Positions 3,394 through 64,000 of a stretch of 64,000 bases of DNA are shown one piece after another. The stretch is from Microbotryomycetes sp. JL201 (Eukaryota; Basidiomycota; Microbotryomycetes). The translations under genes and the position numbers were made by a program. The DNA is taken from NCBI GenBank assembly GCA_033819885.1, contig JAQYUZ010000025.1, positions 170,872 through 234,871 of the forward strand, read 5' to 3'. Numbering within the stretch: position 1 is the stretch's first letter; each line of letters begins with the position of its first letter. The notes beneath the pieces were generated by a model. That model searched no databases. It was not told where the DNA came from and was given only the letters and a program-made list of their open reading frames with translations.

Positions 3394-5462
3394 TCGGGCT
3401 CGCCACCCACAACAAAAGGAGTGCTTCGTTGCACTGCCACTTCCGCATCAACTTGCATACTTGAATGCAAGCATATGCGCGTCTTGTCTTTATTCATCTT
3501 GTCTGTTTATCTTAATCTCTGATTCTAATTTTCCGATGTGGATTTCCTTCCGACTTTGTTCCCCTTCCGTAGTTTGCGCCAGTTTTCTTTTTTTCTTGCA
3601 AACATGGTATACACAACTTTTTGCATGTCTGGCGCGAAGGAAGATAGAATGGCTTCTGCCCGCTTCGCCTGCAAGGTCATTGTGTCAGGCAAGTTTTGGC
3701 GCAACGAATTTGCTAATGAAAAGCGGGCGCAACCAGCATTGCTCTGTTTCATTTCGCTCAGCTGATACGTAGAGTTGAAATGACAGGTGACGCCGTTCCC
3801 AACTATCTACATGCGCCGCCTTGACGAGACGATACGTTTGCCACGTACCCGGGGCAATTTTGCCGTCAGAAGCTCGCGCCGGATGTTGCGCGAAACGTCT
3901 ACTGCATACGATGTATCGCGTAGGAGTTCCGGCCAGTGCACAGTGCGTATTATCGCCAACCCCCAACACAGTCTGCTGCTCTTTTATGACAGTGTAGTGC
4001 CGCCGATCATGAAAGTCTCACACAGCTCATTATGCTTTCGCCACTTGTGAGAACCCCGGCGAGTTTTGGATAGTAAAGGTGATTTTAGGTACATTGCGCC
4101 CTTTACAACCACGCGCGGTTTGATCGTCAGTCAGTTGCATGCTTGAGAGATGTTGGTATTCGTCTCGAACGAGTTTGTGCGGCGGAAAGGAAGGAGCTTC
4201 CGCGATTCCCTTTGCAGCTTCACGGTCAGCTATCTCAGCTGGAGGCGCGAAAGGCTCTAGCTTTGCGGAGCAAGATCTCGACGAGAGGTGAACAAAGGGA
4301 ACCTGAATGACGTCGTGTGATCGCCCGGAACAAGTCGTGGTCACGCTTGATCGGAAAGCATCAGCAGGATCGAGGCAGCAAAAAATCAGAAGCCGTTTCT
4401 GGCATCACAGATCGTCGGTGGGTCACCTTGACTCTCAGTTGAATGCCTCGCTTGCGGTGGATTGTACTGAGACGAGCAACGGCATCAAGACGAAGGTTTC
4501 ATTGTGCGCAAATATCCCGTGCTTCCCCCAAGTCCGCAAACGCCGAGTGTTGCAACTCCCGGGCATGCGTTCATTCAAGTTTCGGGGTGCCACAGGCAAA
4601 CAGCTCGACCGACTATCCCTAAGAAAGATATCGATGCGAAAGAAACAGGACCAATGAATTAGCGATGGGCTTCGCTATTGCTGAAAACCTTTGTAGCTTA
4701 TTCTGGAGCGGAGCGGTTAAGACCTAGAGGTCAACGGTTCCTGCTCCATATGATTCTGTGGTTTGCACCATTCTCCGTTCATCGCAATCGCATCGGCTGG
4801 CCCACGACCAGCATTCTCCAGTGGTCGATTTGCCTCCGACTACTGCAGAGAATAGCTTCCGATCCTCTTTTCACCAGCACGCTGTTTATCACGCTGTCTC
4901 CACCGGTGACTCAAATCGATTTTCTAGACACAGGACTGCCAAACTCGATGCGAGCGTACGAAGCAGACTTGACGGAACAGGGCCACGGCGCATGTCTCAG
5001 AAGAATGCCGCGTACATAATGTCAAGCTCGACGGCTCAAAAGCTATGCGAGACCGAAAGTGAAGCGATATCGTTCAGGTTGGGGTTCGCTTCGCGGTTTC
5101 TTTGTATTTCGTTATCAGAAGATCATTTTACTGACCACCGACCTCGAACAATGCCGTCTCCGGCAGTTCGTGCCGTATGCATCGAGTGCAAATCTGGCCA
5201 TGTTCTCGCATTGACGCTGCAGTCTAGTCACCCAAAATGATTGTAAAATGGACGCTCCCGGGGGCGATCAGTCGCAACTTCTCTGGGCCCTGCATCTCTT
5301 CAAAGATGAACTTTAACCGAGATCATCAGGAGGCAGGAGAAGACTAGTGGGTTCAGATCCTAGTGACTGTGCGTCATGCTTGGGGCGTGAGGTCGAGGCA
5401 CTTGCTCGTGGGCTGTTCGATCCCAAGCTCAAAAGTCACGTGCTTCCCATACGGCCGCTTTA
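3394..5462. other. Two-kilobase stretch without a recognisable gene
   Basis: This holds the 3' flank of the bZIP gene and the 5' flank of GPI18. Open frames on both strands (up to about 160 codons) show no family motif, no plausible splice chain and ordinary out-of-frame composition. I found no tRNA, transposon ends or tandem repeats. It is by far the longest empty interval among the host genes of this window. Confidence 0.5.
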
Positions 5463-6920
5463 ATGGGCGACCCATTGCCGGTCCGGCGGCCCGTCACTGT
5501 GCTCATTCTACTGTCAGCCGCGTTCAAGTGCGTCACCGTGTCACTGTTGCTACTGGTTGGCAGCGTCCTGCCATCATTCGACGCGTCGAGCCGCGTCGTT
5601 GTCGACTCGCCAAGAAACGTGCCACTCGTCAGGTGGGACACGATCTACTTTCTGGAAATTGCCAGCAATGGATATACGTCAGAGCAGCAAACGGCGTTCA
5701 TGCCTGGGCTGCCTTGGCTGATGCGACAGTCCGCGAGAGCTCTACGCACAATCGTCCTTGTTGATACGGAGCTATGGACAGGTGTCGTATGGTGTGCGAT
5801 AGCTTCCACAGTATCCATCGTCTGCATGTACCGGTGAGCTGCAGAGCTGTGACCTTTAGAACCACCGATTCTCACGTGCTTTGTCACTCAGATTAACGCT
5901 GCATATGTTCAAATCTCGGCAAATAGCTCTGGTCACGGCGCTCGTATACTGCGTCCCTCCGTCATGGCCAACGTTCCACGCCGTCCCTTACACGGAGCCA
6001 TTTGCCGCTGCATTCACTCTACTTGGCATGCTTTTGTTCGTCAAGGACCACTCTGTACTGGCTACGGTTGTTTGGGCGGCAGGAACAATGTTCCGTGCAC
6101 AAGGAATTGTGCTAGGTCTTGGATTTTTCGGATGGAGCTACATCCTCGAGCGGCCTTGGGCAAGCGGCAAATTAGACAGCAGGGCAAGTAGGACGGCCAA
6201 GTTGCAACAACACGTCAGCTGACGCAACAGTTCAGACGTTGCTCGCTGGAGCTCTACGCTTCTTTGGGCTGTCCCTCGTGTCAATTTCGCCCTTCCTAGC
6301 GTTCCAGCTGCATGTCCGTTGGCAATTTTGCGGTTCTTCGAGCCAGCAAAGGCCATGGTGTGATATTGGACTTGGTCTGCCATACGACTGGGTTCAGAGT
6401 CATTACTGGTGAGATGTGGCCCCGAGTAGATTGCCGCCAATCCCTTGACTGACTGCTCGATAGGAATGTTGGCTTTCTCAAGTACTGGACCCTACAGCAA
6501 GTGCCCAACTTTTTGTTTGCTGCTCCTGTTCTGGGCATGTCGATTTGGACGTCCGTATGGTTTTATTCGACGTATTCCTACGAAGTCATCACGTCGACTT
6601 TGCCATTTCTCTCTCTTCCATGCCCGAGGACCGAATTCCCACGAGGAGTGCCACGGGAGACGGTCCACACATTGGTTCCATTTATTCACCTTCATACTGC
6701 ATTGACGCTCCTCCTCTTGGTGACGGCTCACGTTCAAATCATTCTCAGAGTGTGCGTCACGAATCCCGCCTTGTTTTGGTTCGTCGCTATGAACCTTGTC
6801 GAGCCACCAACTCCGGACAATCACAAGAGACGGCTGTGGTCAGAGAGGTGGATCAAGTATTGTGTCATTTGGGGTCCCGTGTCTGTCGTTTTGTGGGCCT
6901 GCTTCTTGCCTCCAGCTTGA
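5463..6920 (+). CDS. GPI18: GPI mannosyltransferase 2 (PIG-V/Gpi18)
   Basis: Join 5463..5833, 5892..6187, 6231..6408 and 6464..6920 keeps frame and encodes 433 aa, normal for the family. Gpi18 adds the second mannose to the GPI-anchor precursor in the ER lumen, using dolichol-phosphate mannose. Diagnostic blocks are RWDTIYFLEIASNGY (luminal catalytic region of PIG-V), FMPGLPWL, HAVPYTEPFAAAFTLLGMLL, RPWCDIG..PYDWVQSHYWNVGFLKYW and LQQVPNFLFAAPVL. Many hydrophobic segments fit a multispanning ER protein. The ATG at 5463 lies just before the first membrane segment. It converges with WRAP73, whose coding end is 66 bp away. The assignment is secure. Confidence 0.95.
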
Positions 6921-57844: not shown

Positions 57845-59792
57845 ATGCTTGGTCTCGCAGCGCCCTTTCCCACCTCTCGCACTGCTGGTCAAAGCAAGCC
57901 GCAGCTCGCGCACGAACGAAGCATGACAGCAGCAATGTGTCAGGCGTCACATGAGGCGTCATGTGAAGTGCTGGACGATCATGCGCCGCTGCTCGGATTG
58001 CGTGCGGCGGGCAATGGCCGCCGGATCAAGAGCGAAGACCGGTCCGAAGGCACAGCTTCCCTGGTGTCGTGCGTCGCCAACTTGACCAATACCATCATTG
58101 GAACCGGAGCTCTAGCTATGTGAGCTTGGGTGGCATGCTTCCGGCTGTCACGGGGCATGTCGGCTAAAGACGAGCTCGGATGCAGCGACTATCAAGTATT
58201 GTACACTGAGTTTATGTCCCTTATTCTTCAGGCCTCATGCGTTCGCTTCAGGTGGCCTTGTGCCTGGTATCGTCACAGTCGTGTTTTGCGGCTCTGCGAG
58301 CGCGTTCGGTTTGTACTGTCTGTCATGCAGCGCGCGCAGAGCCCCGCCGCGTGAGGCGTCGTTTGCAGCGCTCTCCGCTCTCACGTATCCTCGCCTCAGT
58401 CGCGTGTCAGTATATCCCGATCCTGTGCGCAAATTTGAGCTCATCCTTGTTTGGCCAGGTTTGACATTGCGATCTTTCTGAAATGCTTCGGCGTGTCTGT
58501 CAGTTACCTCATCGTCATAGGAGCCCTGATGCCGCGCGTCGTATATTCGTTCTCGGCCGCCTCCCCGACCTGGACGCTGGATCGTCGAGTTTGGATCCTG
58601 CTGGCCATGACAATGCTTTGCCCATTGGCCTTTTTGCGGAAACTGGACTCGCTCAAAGTCACAAGCTATATCTCATTATGTGCTGTGGGAAACTTGGTCA
58701 GTAATTGTGTCGCTTGCCGGAATGGTTTGCTTGCTTACTTGACACGTTGGTACAGATATTTGTTGTTGTGTACAAGACATTTTTCCACCGCGATGGCCTG
58801 CCAGAGAGTGTGCCAATACATCTCATCTCCTTGGGACCGTCTTTCATACAAAGTCTCCCTGTCCAGGTGCGCATTTTGGAGACCTACAAAGCAGTGAAAG
58901 GTAGCTCATCCTATTAATGCTGCTCAGGTGTTTGCATTTACATGCGCTCAGAGTACGCCCCTTCTTCTGCCAGTGAACAAGAGCTCACAGACATTGAAAC
59001 AGATCTTTTCGCGGTTTTCAACGAACTTAAGTCCAATACCCAGGCACGGCTGAATATCTGCATTGGCACCTCAATCTCATCGGCAGCAATCGTGTATGAA
59101 GTGCTAGGGGTCCTTGGATACATGACGTTTGGCAGTTCCGTTGGTTCCAACATTATAGAGTGAGCTCTATATTATCACGGCATCAGCAGTGAGCTGATTT
59201 GCTTTGAAGGATGTACCCGCACTCGATTCTGGTCTCAGTATGCCAGTTGGGTCTCGTGGTGCTGGTGCTTTTCTCGTATCCACTCCAGCTGCACCCCGCC
59301 CGTGCGTCGCTGGACAAGGCTCTCTTCCCACCCACAGAGGAAGATGCATTGTCTGCAAACAGCTCAGATATACCGTTGGGCCGCTTTGTCGTCGAGTCAT
59401 CTGCCATCTTGCTCTCAACCTTTGTGCTTGGAATGTTTGTGTCATCTCTGGACACGGTTCTTGGCTTTGTTGGAGCCACAGGCAGCACCACAATATCCTT
59501 CATCCTACCAGCAATTTTCTGTAGGTGCTCATTGTACTGATTGTCAGGGCTTGTTCTTTTGCTGATCCAAGTGCATACATTGCATGCAGATTTGGCATTA
59601 TTTCCAGAAAGTTTGACGTTGAAGCAGAGACTTCTGAGAGGTCTTGCCATTGCTTTGTTGACCTGGGGAGTACTTGTCATGTGTGTTTGTCTCACTCTGA
59701 ATATATGTAAGCTGCTCAATTTAGGAGTTTTGCCAACGCAGCTGACAGCACAATTAGGGAATTTATTCAGCGCTCCAACACCACAACTCTGA
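57845..59792 (+). CDS. AVT-type vacuolar amino-acid transporter (AAAP family)
   Basis: A hydrophilic N-terminus leads to ASLVSCVANLTNTIIGTGAL, the first conserved AAAP helix. Spliced exons give PHAFASGGLVPGIVTVVFCG, FDIAIFLKCFGVSVSYLIVI, LLAMTMLCPLAFLRKLDSLK, VTSYISLCAV, VFAFTCAQNLFAVFNELKSN, YEVLGVLGYMTFGSSVGSNI, YPHSILVSVCQLGLVVLVLF, FVVESSAILLSTFVLGMFVS and GATGSTTISFILPAIFY, about ten to eleven membrane segments. The P-x-A start of helix 2, the VFAFTCAQN block and GATGSTTISFILP match the AVT5/6/7 branch, which exports amino acids from the vacuole. Start choice is open between 57845, 57923 and 57935. The C-terminus at 59792 follows the last hydrophobic segment; a final small intron is possible. 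Confidence 0.85.
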
Positions 59793-60120
59793 CTGCTGAT
59801 CATGTATTATAACTGGTCAACACTCTGGATACATTGTATGACTGTTGTTGTATTATTCATGACCAATGCAAGCATGTGCAAGCCTAGAGGAGGCAAGGTC
59901 CGTTCTCTCTCTTGCAATCACCTTCCCTCTTTCAAGCATGCAGCATCTCAAGTGACTCTGACCGCTTGTAGCACTGCAACTGTCTTCTCTTCTCCGCACA
60001 TGGCATTGCTTCCGCTCCATCTATTCAAAGTATGCAATGCAGCTGGTGGTACACCTGTAGCAAGTGGACAAGTCTCTATGTGAGCGCCAAGCGACAAGGA
60101 TGCGTTGGAGAGAACAGCTA
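59793..60120. other. Spacer between the transporter and the retrotransposon remains
   Basis: These 328 bases show no coding motif. Composition is AT-richer than in the genes. This is the boundary between host genes and transposon DNA; I could not define a target-site duplication. Confidence 0.45.
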
Positions 60121-60213
60121 TGTTGTGGTAAGAAAACAACCCAGCTAGTCCGGCTAAGCTCAGAAGCCTAGGCCCTAGGGAAAGCAATGAGAGAAAAGAT
60201 ATACCGCGTAACA
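60121..60213 (-). repeat. Candidate short LTR (93 bp, TGTT..AACA) of the left copia element
   Basis: Read on the minus strand it starts TGTTACGCGG directly after a polypurine tract and ends CCACAACA, so the ends form TGTT/AACA inverted repeats as in Ty1/copia LTRs. There is no second copy in the window to confirm the boundary, and the far end could lie elsewhere. Confidence 0.35.
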
Positions 60214-60226
60214 CCCCGCCTCGCTC
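60214..60226 (-). other. Polypurine tract of the left copia element
   Basis: GAGCGAGGCGGGG on the minus strand lies just before TGTTACG and 37 bp after the RNase H stop codon. It closely resembles the tract GAGCCAGGGGGGG of the right element, which supports both calls. Confidence 0.55.
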
Positions 60227-60263
60227 AATGCTTTGATGCTGCCAACTCCCATTTGGCAAGGTG

Positions 60264-60656
60264 TCAAAGTCCTAGACCCAATTGATGACAGACAAAGGCT
60301 GGTGCTGGCAGCGGCTTGGTGAGCATGTTGGCAGACAGAAGTTTGGTGGAGATGTAGGTTGGTGTCACAAGGCCAAATGAGATGTATTCCCAGATGAGGT
60401 GCTCCTCCTTGGTGATGTGCCAATTGCCATGGTGGTTGACCAAACTCTGCAACATCTTCAGCGCCCCTTGATTGTCGCCGTAGAGAATAGAAGGTTGAGT
60501 CTGCATGAAACCAAGCTCATCCAGCATGTTGCAATGGCCTTTGATTGTTGTCCCTGTCTCGTTCAAACCCAAGTACTCCGCATCCAATGATGAGAGTGCA
60601 ATACGCTTCTGCTGAACAGAACGCCACGAGATTGCACCAGTGCCCAGGACAGCCAA
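60264..60656 (-). pseudogene. Ty1/copia RNase H 3' remnant (left element)
   Basis: The frame encodes about 130 residues from the end of a copia polyprotein: GTGAISWRSVQQKRIALSSL, DAEYLGLNETGTTIKG, PSILYGDNQGALKMLQS, HITKEEHLIWEYISFGLVTP and TKLLSANMLTKPLPAPAFV. These are the RNase H blocks of Ty1/copia. Sequence differs clearly from the RNase H of the right element (for example LSSLDAEYLGL against DSTTDAEYIAL), so it is a second family. It is cut at its 5' side, where a TAG and then the fold-back arm begin at about 60660. The integrase and RT are missing. Confidence 0.85.
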
Positions 60657-60663
60657 CTATTTG

Positions 60664-61115
60664 AATCAACGGGCGACGCCTACCGATACCTCTATTCGCT
60701 CTACGGAAGACACACTGTACAGCAGAAGGTTGTGTCGATCAACGAACTCGTCGCTCGCGCTGGCGCACCCATGCCATTGGACGCAACAGGCGCCAACGAC
60801 TGGTACAAGTTGTTTGCAAAGGCCGCCATTTGCGTTCAACAAGAGCAATTTTCCACGAAGGACTGGATCTCAATAGTTCGGCTGGGACGGCGCCGAGCAG
60901 GAAGGCTGAGATCCAGTCCTTTGTGGAAAATTGCTCTTGTTGAACGTGAATGGCGGCCTTTGCAAACGACTTGTACCAGTCGTTGGCACCTGTTGCGTCC
61001 AATGGCATGGGTGCGCCAGCGCGAGCGACAAGTTCGTTGATCGACACAACCTTCTGCTGTACAGTGTGTCTTCCGTAGAGCGGATAGAGGTATCGGTAGG
61101 CGTCGCCCGTTGATT
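60664..61115. repeat. 209-bp inverted repeat (fold-back of copia gag) with 34-bp spacer
   Basis: Left arm 60664-60872 and right arm 60907-61115 are reverse complements, 202 of 209 positions identical. The right arm belongs to the gag reading frame of the element on the minus strand; the left arm is the same gag segment inverted, so the same peptide (GRHTVQQKVVSINELVARAG) is encoded on both strands. The 34-bp spacer (60873-60906) continues gag in frame (AFLLGAVPAEL). All seven differences are transitions, six of them at CpG-derived sites. An RNA across it could form a long hairpin. Confidence 0.95.
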
Positions 61116-61506
61116 GACAACGCGACATTGTTGTCAGAATTCTTTGCCGGCGACAACGCGCTTTGGCAAAAATGATGTCGCACACGCGGATGTCGGCTCG
61201 CATGCAAATCATGTTCTTCCATTGGAGGAAGTTGTCGCGTCCGCTGAGTACATAGCTGTCGGGGAAACAATCGATTGGCTTCTGGTTGATCTGTCTCAGC
61301 TTTTTGGTGAAGGACAAATTGCTGGTGCTCATGGCTGCGTGCAGGTCGACTGTGTGTTTGGCGTCGTTTTTCCGCGTCGGCGTAGCGGGCGTTGTGGAAG
61401 GGCGCGTCGCTTCTGTCGCCGTACTTGTGCTGGTGAGCTCATGGCTCGCCTCCGGTGAGCTGCCTGGATAGGCAGTGTCGCCGTCGTGTCCCTGCGCAGG
61501 GCTCAT
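60873..61506 (-). pseudogene. Ty1/copia gag fragment broken by the fold-back
   Basis: The frame starts at the ATG (61504-61506) inside the primer binding site (MSPAQGHDGDTAYPGSS) and continues MSTSNLSFTKKLRQINQ, DSYVLSGRDNFLQWKNMI, MRADIRVCDIIFAKARCRRQ, STGDAYRYLYPLYGRHTVQQ and FSTKDWISAFLLGAVPAEL. The VLSGRDNFLQWKNMI block is the gag start region of copia elements (SG..NFxxWK). True gag sequence ends at 60873, where the inverted copy begins; the frame then runs into antisense sequence and stops at 60739. No zinc knuckle or protease remains. This copy cannot make a complete polyprotein. Confidence 0.8.
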
Positions 61507-61510
61507 AACC
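61494..61510 (-). other. Half-tRNA(iMet) primer binding site
   Basis: GGTTATGAGCCCTGCGC on the minus strand directly follows the LTR end. It is complementary to the anticodon stem-loop of fungal initiator tRNA-Met (GCGCAGGGCTCATAACC in yeast, as I recall it). Copia and Ty5 are known to prime from this internal half-tRNA position instead of the tRNA 3' end. The ATG within it is the complement of the CAU anticodon and opens the gag frame. Confidence 0.8.
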
Positions 61511-61715
61511 TGACGATATGTGTGCGGAGCACGCACGTCGGACTAACGAGAGACACGAGATGCTAGTGAGCACAAGTGTATGCGGTACTAGATGAGGTGA
61601 AGGAAAACCAGAAGGAGAAACTGAGCCTAAGTCCAAGTAAAGACAGGAGGTCTGTAGCTAGTTGAGATAAGGAGGAGTTTGAGCCAGTATGGGAGGAATA
61701 CCATGAAAACCAACA
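61511..61715 (-). repeat. 205-bp copia LTR
   Basis: On the minus strand it begins TGTTGGTTTTC right after a G7 polypurine tract and ends ATATCGTCA right before the primer binding site, so both borders are set by functional signals. The ends are TG..CA. The same LTR is at once the 3' LTR of the pol-bearing element on its right and the 5' LTR of the gag fragment on its left. Confidence 0.8.
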
Positions 61716-61728
61716 CCCCCCCTGGCTC
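61716..61728 (-). other. Polypurine tract of the right copia element
   Basis: GAGCCAGGGGGGG on the minus strand overlaps the pol stop codon (61727-61729) and abuts the LTR. This is the standard position of the plus-strand priming tract. Confidence 0.75.
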
Positions 61729-64000
61729 AATGCTCAATCTGATCAACTCCTAGCCATGTCCGGTGTTTTGTGAACAACGGTCCGTCCAATGCCTTGATGA
61801 AAATGTCGGCCGTCTGCTCCTTCGTAGGCAAATATGACACGCGGACAATGCGTTCCTTCACGTGCTCGCGAATCAAATGCTCGGCAATGCGAATATGTCG
61901 AGTGCGGAAGTGTGCAGTTGGGTTGTTGGCGAGGGCCACTGAAGCAGTGTTGTCGCCAAGGAGGTTGGTTGGGCCATTCTGGATGATGTTGAGCTCACCA
62001 GTGAGTTCCTGCAGGCAGATGACGCTCTTGGAGGCCTTGCCAAGCGCAATGTATTCGGCATCCGTGGTCGAGTCCGCGACCCGAGTCTGCATGTGGGACT
62101 TCCAAAAAATGGCGGCGCCATTGAGCTCAATGAAGTGACCCATTTGTGAGTGTGAATTGACAGGTGCGTCGGCCCAACTGGCATCACTGAGTGCAACAAG
62201 TTGCAGTGCATGCGGTCGGCCGGGTCCATCAAAAACCAGGCCGAAGTCAAGTGTGCCTCTGATGTAGCGCAGTACCTGTTGAGCAGCATTCCAGTGGTCT
62301 TGACTTGGGTTGGCATTGAACTGTCCTAGATACAATGCGGCAAATGCAAGGTCTGGTCGAGTCGCGGTGGTGGCGTACGTGATGCATCCAATGGCCTTCT
62401 GATAGCGGTGTATCTCATCCGGTGTTGCCTGGCCTGTGTTTGGAGCCAGTTTGATTTTGGATGGCAGCGGTACCTCACTTGGCTTGCAATTGCAAAGGTC
62501 AAACTGGTCAAGCACGCTCTCAAGATACTGACGCTGAGAAAGGCTGATGGAACCGTCAGGCTTGCGCGTAATCTGCAGGCTGAGCACAAACTCAGCATTG
62601 CCGAGGCGCTTGATGCCGTATTCACGCTCGAGATTGTCCAAGGTTTGTTCAATTACTGCTTGGTTGGGTCCAATGAACAAAAGATCGTCCACGTAAAGCG
62701 CAATGTAGTACTCGGCGCCGTTAACCGTCTTAGCAAAAATGCAGTTGTCTTTGATGCATTGCTGATACCCAAGGGCGCTGAGCGTTGCGGTGATGCGCGT
62801 GTTCCAGGTTCGTCCGGCTTGCTTCAGGCCGTAGATTGACCGAGTGAGCCTGAGCGCCTTGCCGTCGTAACCCGCAATACCTGTTGGCGGATGCATGTAG
62901 ATCTCTTTGTCGAGCTCTCTGTGTAGGTATGCTTTGTCGACATTGGCTTGAATGATGTGTAGACCCTTTGCGGCGGCAATGGCGACGAGCAAGCGGATGG
63001 AGTCAAAACGCACAACCGGAGAGAATGTCTCACCATAGTCAATGCCAGGGCGTTGTGAGAAGCCCTGAGCCACCAGGCGTGCCTTGTACTGCGTGGGTGT
63101 GCCGTGTTGATCGCATTTTGTTTGAAAAACAAACTTTGACCCAATGAGTTTGGCGGCCGGCGGAACGCTGGAGAGTGGCACGGCATGGAATACCTCGTAC
63201 TCACAAAGAAGAGAATCAAATTCGTCTTCTGCGCTGACGCGCCAGCGCTTGCAAAGTGGCGAAGCCATTGCCTGTTGCCATGTTAGCGGGTCGCTGCCAG
63301 GGACCTCAATGACGGCGTCCTCAAGCTGCTGATTGGTGTGATTGGTGCGCAACGCGGTTGGCTGATGTGTCAGGTAGACAGAGCCTGTCAGCATGTTGAT
63401 CGGGTCCGGTGATGACGGCGGCGTTGTGATTGGGTCGGTGACACCAAAGTCTGGCGCACGTGGTCGAGGGATTTCTTGTCGATCCAGCACGTCGCGATGC
63501 CGTATCTTGCGGGGAGTGCGTGGCGCAGGTGCTGGTTGTGGTGTGGGTGGCAAGTCAAGAGCTGATTCTCTGATCTCTTCAAGCCTCGGGGCGTCTGGCT
63601 GCGGCGTTGCCGGTGGCGTAGGGGACGCTGTGAGGGTGCCAGTAAGTGGCACTGACTGTTCCCTACTGACCGCAACATCACTCACGGTTGGAGGGGCGTT
63701 GCCACTGCGTAACCGTCCCCCTCCAGGATTTGAGAGCTGTGAATCAAGTGGTACATACGAGGGGCAGACTGGTTCTGTCAAACCATTGCAGCAACCGGGA
63801 GAAGCGCTTGCATTTGAGTGCCCAGGAAAGTCGCTCTCATTGAAGATGACGTCGCAAGTTACCTGAACAGCGCCAGTTGCGGGATTGAGGAGGCGCCATG
63901 CTTTGTGTTGTACATTGTAGCCGATAAAGATGCGTGGTTGAGCTTTGAGGTCCAACTTGCCGCGGTGGGTGTGAGTCTTTGCCCATGCTTGACATCCAAA
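61727..64000 (-). mobile_element. Ty1/copia polyprotein, 3' part (integrase end, reverse transcriptase, RNase H), open at the right edge
   Basis: An uninterrupted frame of more than 750 codons runs from the right edge to TGA at 61727-61729. It starts within the integrase C-terminal region (FGCQAWAKTHTHRGKLDLKA, PRIFIGYNVQHKAWRL), followed by a Pro-rich linker with GSDPLTWQQAM. The RT has KARLVAQGFSQRPGIDYGET, ANVDKAYLHRELDKEIYM (first catalytic Asp), LTRSIYGLKQAGRTWN and the YVDD box (62684-62695). RNase H has LVALSDASWADAP, RVADSTTDAEYIALGKAS, LLGDNTASVALANNPT, RTRHIRIAEHLIREHV and YLPTKEQTADIFIKALDG. No stop or frameshift is seen, and catalytic residues are present, so this copy may be young. 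Gag, protease and most of the integrase lie outside the window. Confidence 0.93.

What the first reader, a model, noticed from the sequence alone, without database searches (positions are those of the whole stretch)
60664..61115. 209-bp copia gag fold-back: possible natural hairpin RNA
Inverted arms of exactly 209 bp (96.7% identical) with a 34-bp gag-derived loop sit downstream, in the direction of transcription, of an LTR that could drive them. Transcription would give a long double-stranded RNA matching gag of the neighbouring element. Such a locus could act as an siRNA source that silences the family, much as known inverted-repeat transposon derivatives do elsewhere. Origin by template switching or snap-back synthesis during reverse transcription is plausible.
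Basis: partly seen in the sequence, partly recalled or inferred. Interest (0 to 1): 0.7.

Follow-up and report, generated by a model that had tools for sequence, protein, structure and literature searches.

The report
Copia gag fold-back in transposon island
A scrambled piece of a copia retrotransposon has ended up as a 209-bp DNA hairpin next to a promoter-bearing repeat, in a genome that has RNA-silencing genes, so it could make silencing RNA, although it is most simply a rearrangement by-product.

Summary
The fold-back is real: arms 60664-60872 and 60907-61115, 202 of 209 positions complementary, 34-nt loop. All 7 arm differences are transitions, 6 CpG-type, so an assembly artefact is unlikely. 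The structure is larger than reported. On the minus strand: copia LTR A, gag, a 52-bp inverted gag block, gag, loop, inverted gag (to 60649), then the RNase H end of another copia family: four junctions with 0-2 nt in common, as left by strand-switching synthesis or end-joining. The LTR is also the 3' LTR of a neighbouring element with an open 757-aa pol frame. The genome (17.15 Mb; fungus, inferred) has an Argonaute, a Dicer-like gene and a DNA methylase; no RdRP was found, without a working control. Its copia copies show TpCpG hypermutation. The hairpin-siRNA idea is possible and testable but not shown: no RNA data, no sign of selection. Precedents exist (N. castellii, Mu killer). Best reading: a rearrangement by-product that may incidentally feed RNAi.

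The parts
60664..60872 (+). left arm of the fold-back: copia-A gag fragment reading on the + strand (inverted relative to the LTR-gag unit); gag homology continues to 60649
60649..60663 (+). 15-nt extension of the left arm with no partner left in the right arm
   Evidence: 60649-60872 matches C35 and C24 as one ungapped 224-nt piece; alignment
60873..60906 (-). 34-nt loop, the continuation of gag in the minus-strand direction
   Evidence: 60873-61115 matches C35 95-337 without a gap
60907..61115 (-). right arm: gag in normal orientation behind the LTR
61117..61168 (+). 52-bp inverted gag block; roughly 80 nt of gag that follow it in other copies are missing
   Evidence: 61114-61168 matches C35 475-421 and C24 350-296 in inverted orientation; 61117-61168 matches C28 3810-3861
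61169..61506 (-). 5' part of gag in normal orientation; the open frame 61542-60742 runs on through the inverted block, right arm, loop and into the left arm (267 aa)
   Evidence: start codon at 61506 read by eye
61511..61716 (-). LTR of copia family A, shared: 5' LTR of the gag piece and 3' LTR of the neighbouring element; candidate promoter of the hairpin (limits approximate)
   Evidence: 20 genome matches (a capped, lower-bound list); a run of G (polypurine tract, read by eye) and the pol stop abut it
61730..64000 (-). open pol frame of the neighbouring copia element (757 aa, RVT_2), running off the end of the contig
60267..60648 (-). 3' end of RNase H of a second copia family (B), cut at 60648 by the fold-back
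   Evidence: 60053-60648 is 96% like C28 750-1346; RNase H named from the translation by eye, no Pfam hit
60020..60213 (-). 3' LTR region of family B (upper end read by eye at a TGTT after a G-rich run; lower end not determined)
   Evidence: matches at several other contigs

Best explanation
This is a by-product of templated strand-switching inside a copia retrotransposon cluster. A copia-A piece (LTR-gag) was copied or joined so that synthesis turned back on itself, leaving a gag fold-back with a 34-nt loop. The outer end of the fold-back was joined to the RNase H end of a second copia element, and a second small inversion with deletion altered the right arm. The copying could have happened during reverse transcription, with capture of the aberrant cDNA at a break, or during repair of a chromosomal break. 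Shown: anatomy, order of blocks, near-blunt junctions, diverged arms, RNAi genes in the genome. Inferred: mechanism and order of events. Secondary, unproven: if LTR A drives transcription, the RNA would be a 209-bp hairpin that the host's Dicer and Argonaute could turn into gag siRNAs (my estimate: about 0.3 that any hairpin siRNAs are made, about 0.05 that this is a selected function).
For: Block order and orientation from blastn against four other loci. The four junctions, read by eye against the copies, share 0-2 nt. The arms differ from each other at 7 sites and from C24 or C35 at 9 or 10, and a 34-nt loop favours one event over two independent insertions. Other inverted arrangements in the sequence held: an LTR-LTR palindrome at C60:64001-64304, LTR-gag-inverted LTR at C29:183493-184837, and a long gene palindrome at C20:840-2233. 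Yeast break repair yields fold-back inversions with a 41-nt loop and 0-5 nt (median 2) at the outer join, up to about 150 bp, and double inverted insertions (PMC11724301, passages). 18 of the 20 LTR-A matches listed lie within about 6 kb of a contig end (for the 2 on C68 the contig length is unknown), i.e. repeat clusters. Argonaute, Dicer_dimer and DNA methylase found.
Against: No trace tells cDNA copying from break repair. In the yeast work the fold-back point itself used a 10-bp imperfect inverted microhomology, and a median of 6 bp in double inverted insertions; here the fold-back point and the RNase H join show none by eye, so plain end-joining of fragments fits them as well. C24 and C35, two separate loci, also differ at only 7 sites in the same stretch, so arm similarity is weak evidence for one parent; the sites shared by the arms are CpG sites that could mutate twice. 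The other inverted structures come from a non-random sample (family copies and contig starts).
Confidence: 0.62

Rival explanations
1. Functional natural hairpin: LTR A drives a hairpin RNA that Dicer cuts into gag siRNAs, silencing copia A in trans; in a host without RdRP this would be a main source of copia dsRNA.
For: Hairpin and orientation; Argonaute and Dicer-like genes; RdRP not found; of 309 arm 21-mers, 85, 81 and 23 occur in C35, C24 and C28; precedent: palindromic loci gave 74.1% of 22-23-nt siRNA reads in wild-type N. castellii (PMC7528652, passages).
Against: No RNA data; LTR promoter activity unknown; copies are hypermutated and a methylase is present, so the locus may be silent; the arms differ mostly at CpG-type sites with no compensation seen; the RdRP absence lacks a positive control; 0 of 309 arm 21-mers occur in C29 or C60.
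Confidence: 0.12
2. Two independent copia-A insertions or fragments in opposite orientation, end-joined after deletion so that two gag ends happen to lie 34 nt apart.
For: At C29 the inverted LTR belongs to a subtype with an internal 57-bp duplication unlike its partner LTR, so there two different copies met; no microhomology at the fold-back point; the arms are no more alike than C24 and C35 are (7 differences each).
Against: Needs two unrelated breakpoints within 34 nt of one another in gag; each arm is nearer to the other (7) than to C24 or C35 (9 or 10).
Confidence: 0.18
3. Assembly or library artefact (chimeric inverted read).
For: The contig is one of 92 and ends 2.9 kb away in a repeat.
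Against: Arms differ at 7 sites with the same CpG bias as between loci; unequal arm ends, a second inversion and a foreign copia piece at the outer end are not what a hairpin artefact leaves.
Confidence: 0.04

Closest known systems
Palindromic siRNA loci of Naumovozyma castellii (RdRP-independent budding-yeast RNAi)
   Same: Fungal inverted repeats whose transcripts fold into hairpins; host with Dicer and Argonaute; palindromic loci gave 74.1% of 22-23-nt siRNA reads in wild type (PMC7528652, passages).
   Different: There siRNAs are sequenced and Dicer is called unusual (abstract); here there are no RNA data, the Dicer-like gene has a helicase piece, and RdRP absence is not proven.
Mu killer of maize
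   Same: Partial inverted duplication of a transposon gene, proposed to give a read-through hairpin and siRNAs (PMC3440606, start of abstract in a listing).
   Different: About 4-kb hairpin RNA of a DNA transposon, read through from a flanking gene, and able to silence MuDR/Mu lines; here 209 bp of a retrotransposon gag, LTR-linked, untested.
Fold-back and double inverted insertions at DNA breaks in yeast
   Same: Inverted copies with loops of tens of nt and 0-5 nt outer joins (41-nt loop there, 34 here); double inverted insertions from one locus (PMC11724301, passages).
   Different: Those are mostly under 14 bp, up to about 150 bp, and turn back at a 10-bp imperfect inverted microhomology; here an arm of 224 bp, no microhomology seen at the turn, and retrotransposon DNA on all sides.
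TpCpG RIP-like hypermutation of Microbotryum retrotransposons
   Same: Differences between close copies concentrate on TpCpG (PMC5381629, passages; here).
   Different: A context feature of copia copies here, not of the fold-back itself.

Membership tests
natural hairpin siRNA (hpRNA) locus | long inverted repeat with short loop able to form dsRNA | tested here: met
natural hairpin siRNA (hpRNA) locus | Argonaute in the organism | tested here: met
   Piwi at C2, 215.1 and 42.2 bits against cut-off 28.9
natural hairpin siRNA (hpRNA) locus | Dicer in the organism | tested here: met
   Dicer_dimer at C20 over cut-off (28.3 and 26.1 bits against 23.7) with a Helicase_C piece upstream over cut-off (26 against 23.5). 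The RNase III part is weak: of 3 downstream pieces, 2 match RNase III models below cut-off (E 0.018 and 0.077) and 1 nothing; in PDB one piece finds Dicer-like 3 at E 0.006, another nothing; motifs otherwise read by eye
natural hairpin siRNA (hpRNA) locus | transcribed, with small-RNA reads mostly (over 80%) from the hairpin strand | not testable with these tools
   no RNA data held; strand criterion from PMC9757828 (passages)
RdRP-independent palindromic locus (N. castellii type) | host lacks RNA-dependent RNA polymerase | tested here: inconclusive
   PF05183: 0 matches at E up to 0.001 and up to 10, but no control genome rang
Mu killer type silencer | inverted duplication of an autonomous element's gene | tested here: inconclusive
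   a gag fragment is inverted, but whether its source element was autonomous is unknown
Mu killer type silencer | silencing in trans | not testable with these tools
   needs genetics
fold-back or MITE DNA transposon | terminal inverted repeats flanked by target-site duplication, in several copies | tested here: not met
   arms are internal to a copia-type LTR unit; no flanking repeat visible by eye; the 6 places that match the arm are this pair plus four single places, though the C24 match lies at the very start of its contig, so a partner there could be missing
fungal miRNA-like hairpin | short imperfect stem (recalled) | tested here: not met
   209-bp near-perfect stem

The most novel reading that the evidence does not exclude
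In a fungus with Argonaute and Dicer but no canonical RdRP, spontaneous retrotransposon fold-backs (this locus, C60, C29) and other palindromes (C20) are the host's entry point for dsRNA: each new rearranged copy becomes an LTR-driven hairpin that silences its family, alongside TpCpG hypermutation and DNA methylation.
Probability: 0.07. Interest if true: 0.65.

Novelty: new member of a known kind. Interest (0 to 1): 0.33.

Why it matters
If it makes siRNAs, it would be a natural long hairpin feeding RNAi against a retrotransposon; a review-scale re-analysis of fungal hairpins says exploration is still needed to show clearly whether long hairpin RNAs act naturally (PMC9757828, passages). It would also show how chance rearrangements can seed transposon immunity. 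If it does not, it is still a readable record of strand-switching rearrangement in a retrotransposon cluster.

Tried and rejected
Rejected: a fold-back DNA transposon (internal gag arms, no target-site duplication seen); a miRNA-like hairpin (stem far too long); a simple assembly palindrome (diverged, unequal arms). Tried without result: SSU rRNA search to place the organism (searches failed on the machine); RdRP search (nothing, no control rang); PDB search with one RNase III piece (none); the sigma-70 promoter and terminator scan, a bacterial-type test that says nothing about a fungal LTR. The RNase III match at C24:202449-202859 may be the mitochondrial ribosomal protein mL44, judging from a below-cut-off match (E 0.0027); I do not count it as Dicer. 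Relatives outside this genome were not searched: the tool says G000 has no relatives on hand, and I ran no scan of viral contigs, genome contigs, phages or plasmids, which hold viruses, prokaryotes and plasmids; metagenome scans were capped at 0. That scan also listed two short inverted repeats of 46-47 bp (L008, L011) and further opposite-facing LTR pairs within L037; I did not pursue them.

Paper searches: 7 of 10 used. None of the titles listed describes this locus; subscription literature is mostly not held. Papers seen as passages only: PMC7763443, PMC9757828, PMC7528652, PMC7175516, PMC5381629, PMC11724301. Start of abstract only, in a listing: PMC3440606.

Full report
Observation. Arms 60664-60872 and 60907-61115 are 209 nt long, agree at 202 of 209 positions and enclose 34 nt. 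It is the one inverted repeat listed by a blastn self-comparison of the 64-kb window. The minus-strand RNA folds at -434.9 kcal/mol against a shuffle mean of -160.5, with none of 100 shuffles as good.

Anatomy. I compared 58000-64000 with four other loci of the same genome that carry the gag piece (C35, C24, C28, C29). Read on the minus strand the order is: LTR of family A (61716-61511); gag in normal sense (61506-61169); a 52-bp gag block in inverted orientation (61168-61117); gag in normal sense again (61115-60873: right arm plus loop), with roughly 80 nt of gag before it missing; an inverted gag copy (60872-60649, the left arm); then the RNase H end and LTR region of another copia family, B (60648 to about 60020), of which 60053-60648 is 96% like C28 750-1346. 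The left arm is 15 nt longer than its partner, so the original fold-back was probably longer than 209 bp. The LTR is abutted on its far side by a run of G (read by eye as the polypurine tract) and the stop of a 757-aa copia pol frame (RVT_2, E 1.1e-62) that runs off the contig end. The LTR therefore ends one element and begins the gag piece. Gag and RNase H are named by position and by eye; neither piece has a Pfam match.

Junctions. Compared by eye with the other copies, the four joins share 0 to 2 nt: 2 at each edge of the 52-bp block, none at the RNase H join, and none seen at the fold-back point (the progenitor's bases there are unknown). Alternating strands, a short loop and near-blunt joins are what strand-switching synthesis leaves. 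In yeast, fold-back inversions at breaks were seen with a 41-nt loop and 0-5 nt (median 2) microhomology at the outer join, from 2 to about 150 bp, most under 14 bp; double inverted insertions from one locus also occur (PMC11724301, passages). Against an exact parallel, the turning point there used a 10-bp imperfect inverted microhomology (median 6 bp in double inverted insertions), which I do not see here; joining of two fragments therefore stays open. Reverse transcription with strand switching, followed by cDNA capture, would look much the same; I cannot separate these.

Arms and their history. The 7 arm differences are all transitions and 6 are CpG-type. The same holds between loci in this stretch: 7 of 7 for C24 against C35. 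Over 606 aligned bases, 20 of 29 C24-C35 differences are CpG transitions, 14 of the 20 in a TpCpG context, against a TpCpG share of 23% among the CpGs of C24 (binomial p about 1e-5). TCG/TTG is 1.10 in window 1-56000 (not annotated by me, taken as mostly genes) and 0.11-0.38 in six copia-bearing stretches. This resembles the TpCpG RIP-like signature reported for Microbotryum and, by that paper, conserved in Pucciniomycotina (PMC5381629, passages). Results the other way: in more distant pairs the CpG share is far lower (42 of 198 for C28-C29; 8 of 22 for family B, window against C28), and CpG observed/expected in 60649-61716 is 1.12, not depleted (window 1-59800: 1.14; pol 0.89; family B 0.43). 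So the process is clear among close copies but has not stripped this locus of CpG. A DNA methylase is present (PF00145, two matches at C8:158447-159602). Two consequences follow. The arms have drifted since they formed, which argues against an artefact. And the 3% arm divergence probably overstates age, because few changes lie outside CpG. The arms are closer to each other (7 differences) than to C24 or C35 (9 or 10), but C24 and C35 also differ at 7, and the sites shared by the arms are CpG sites that could have mutated twice, so common parentage is favoured only weakly.

RNAi genes. Argonaute: Piwi matches at C2:417186-417881 and 418087-418224 (215.1 and 42.2 bits, cut-off 28.9), E 4.3e-59 to a PDB chain named Protein argonaute-2. 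Dicer: Dicer_dimer at C20:103872-104170 over cut-off, a Helicase_C piece upstream, and downstream pieces with RNase III-like motifs by eye but only weak matches in two of three and none in the third. RdRP: 0 matches at E up to 10, but no control genome rang, so absence is not established. That the organism is a fungus, perhaps of the Pucciniomycotina, is my inference from genome size, intron-bearing genes and the TpCpG signature; the rRNA searches failed.

What it does. Nothing here shows transcription. If LTR A fires, its RNA would run into the hairpin, and read-through from the neighbouring element would do the same. The product could feed Dicer; 85, 81, 23, 0 and 0 of 309 arm 21-mers occur in C35, C24, C28, C29 and C60, so it could touch some but not all relatives. 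In N. castellii many prolific siRNA loci are inverted repeats and palindromic loci gave 74.1% of 22-23-nt siRNA reads in wild type (PMC7528652, passages); Mu killer is the plant precedent (PMC3440606, start of abstract). Against a dedicated function: the family sits in clusters of broken copia pieces (18 of 20 listed LTR-A matches within about 6 kb of a contig end, 2 unknown), although repeats also tend to break assemblies there; other inverted arrangements occur in the family (C60, C29) and elsewhere (C20); and the arms differ without visible compensation.

Verdict. A confirmed fold-back of ordinary raw material, most likely formed by multi-step rearrangement, in a host where it could incidentally make siRNAs. 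It works, at most, like a hairpin silencer; membership in that class is untested on its key feature, small RNAs.

Noticed in passing
L034 (G000:C20) 840-2233: Large palindrome: 77 differences in 677 aligned bases between the arms (88.6%; 87% in blastn), with a centre of roughly 40 nt that pairs poorly; cysteine-rich open frames (238 and 156 aa) lie in the two halves. Another candidate natural hairpin.
   Followed up: partly
L037 (G000:C60:61900-65900) 2102-2405: LTR-A fragment (98 nt) directly abutting a full inverted LTR-A: a near loop-free LTR palindrome.
   Followed up: partly
L011 (G000:C29) 4494-5838: LTR - gag - inverted LTR arrangement; the inverted LTR is a subtype with a 57-bp internal tandem duplication.
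   Followed up: partly
L009 (G000:C24) 1-4: Contig C24 begins 3 bases before the point that corresponds to the arm edge of the fold-back; a second fold-back that broke the assembly there is possible, or coincidence.
   Followed up: no
L008 (G000:C35) 732-868: Gag of family A joined almost directly to the RNase H end and first bases of the LTR of family B: another A/B chimaera.
   Followed up: no
copia-bearing stretches in the window and in C24, C28, C29, C60: TpCpG-biased differences between close copia copies (TCG/TTG 0.11-0.38 against 1.10 in window 1-56000), and a DNA methylase at C8:158447-159602.
   Followed up: yes
window 61500-61511: The stretch just after the LTR resembles the anticodon arm of elongator tRNA-Met rather than a tRNA 3' end, suggesting an internal-tRNA primer as in some copia elements; recalled, not tested.
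   Followed up: no
window 60742-61542: The gag frame stays open (267 aa) through the inverted 52-bp block, right arm and loop.
   Followed up: no
G000:C15:241429-242949: A copia-type pol match (32% identity) inside an uninterrupted 1754-aa frame near a contig end.
   Followed up: no
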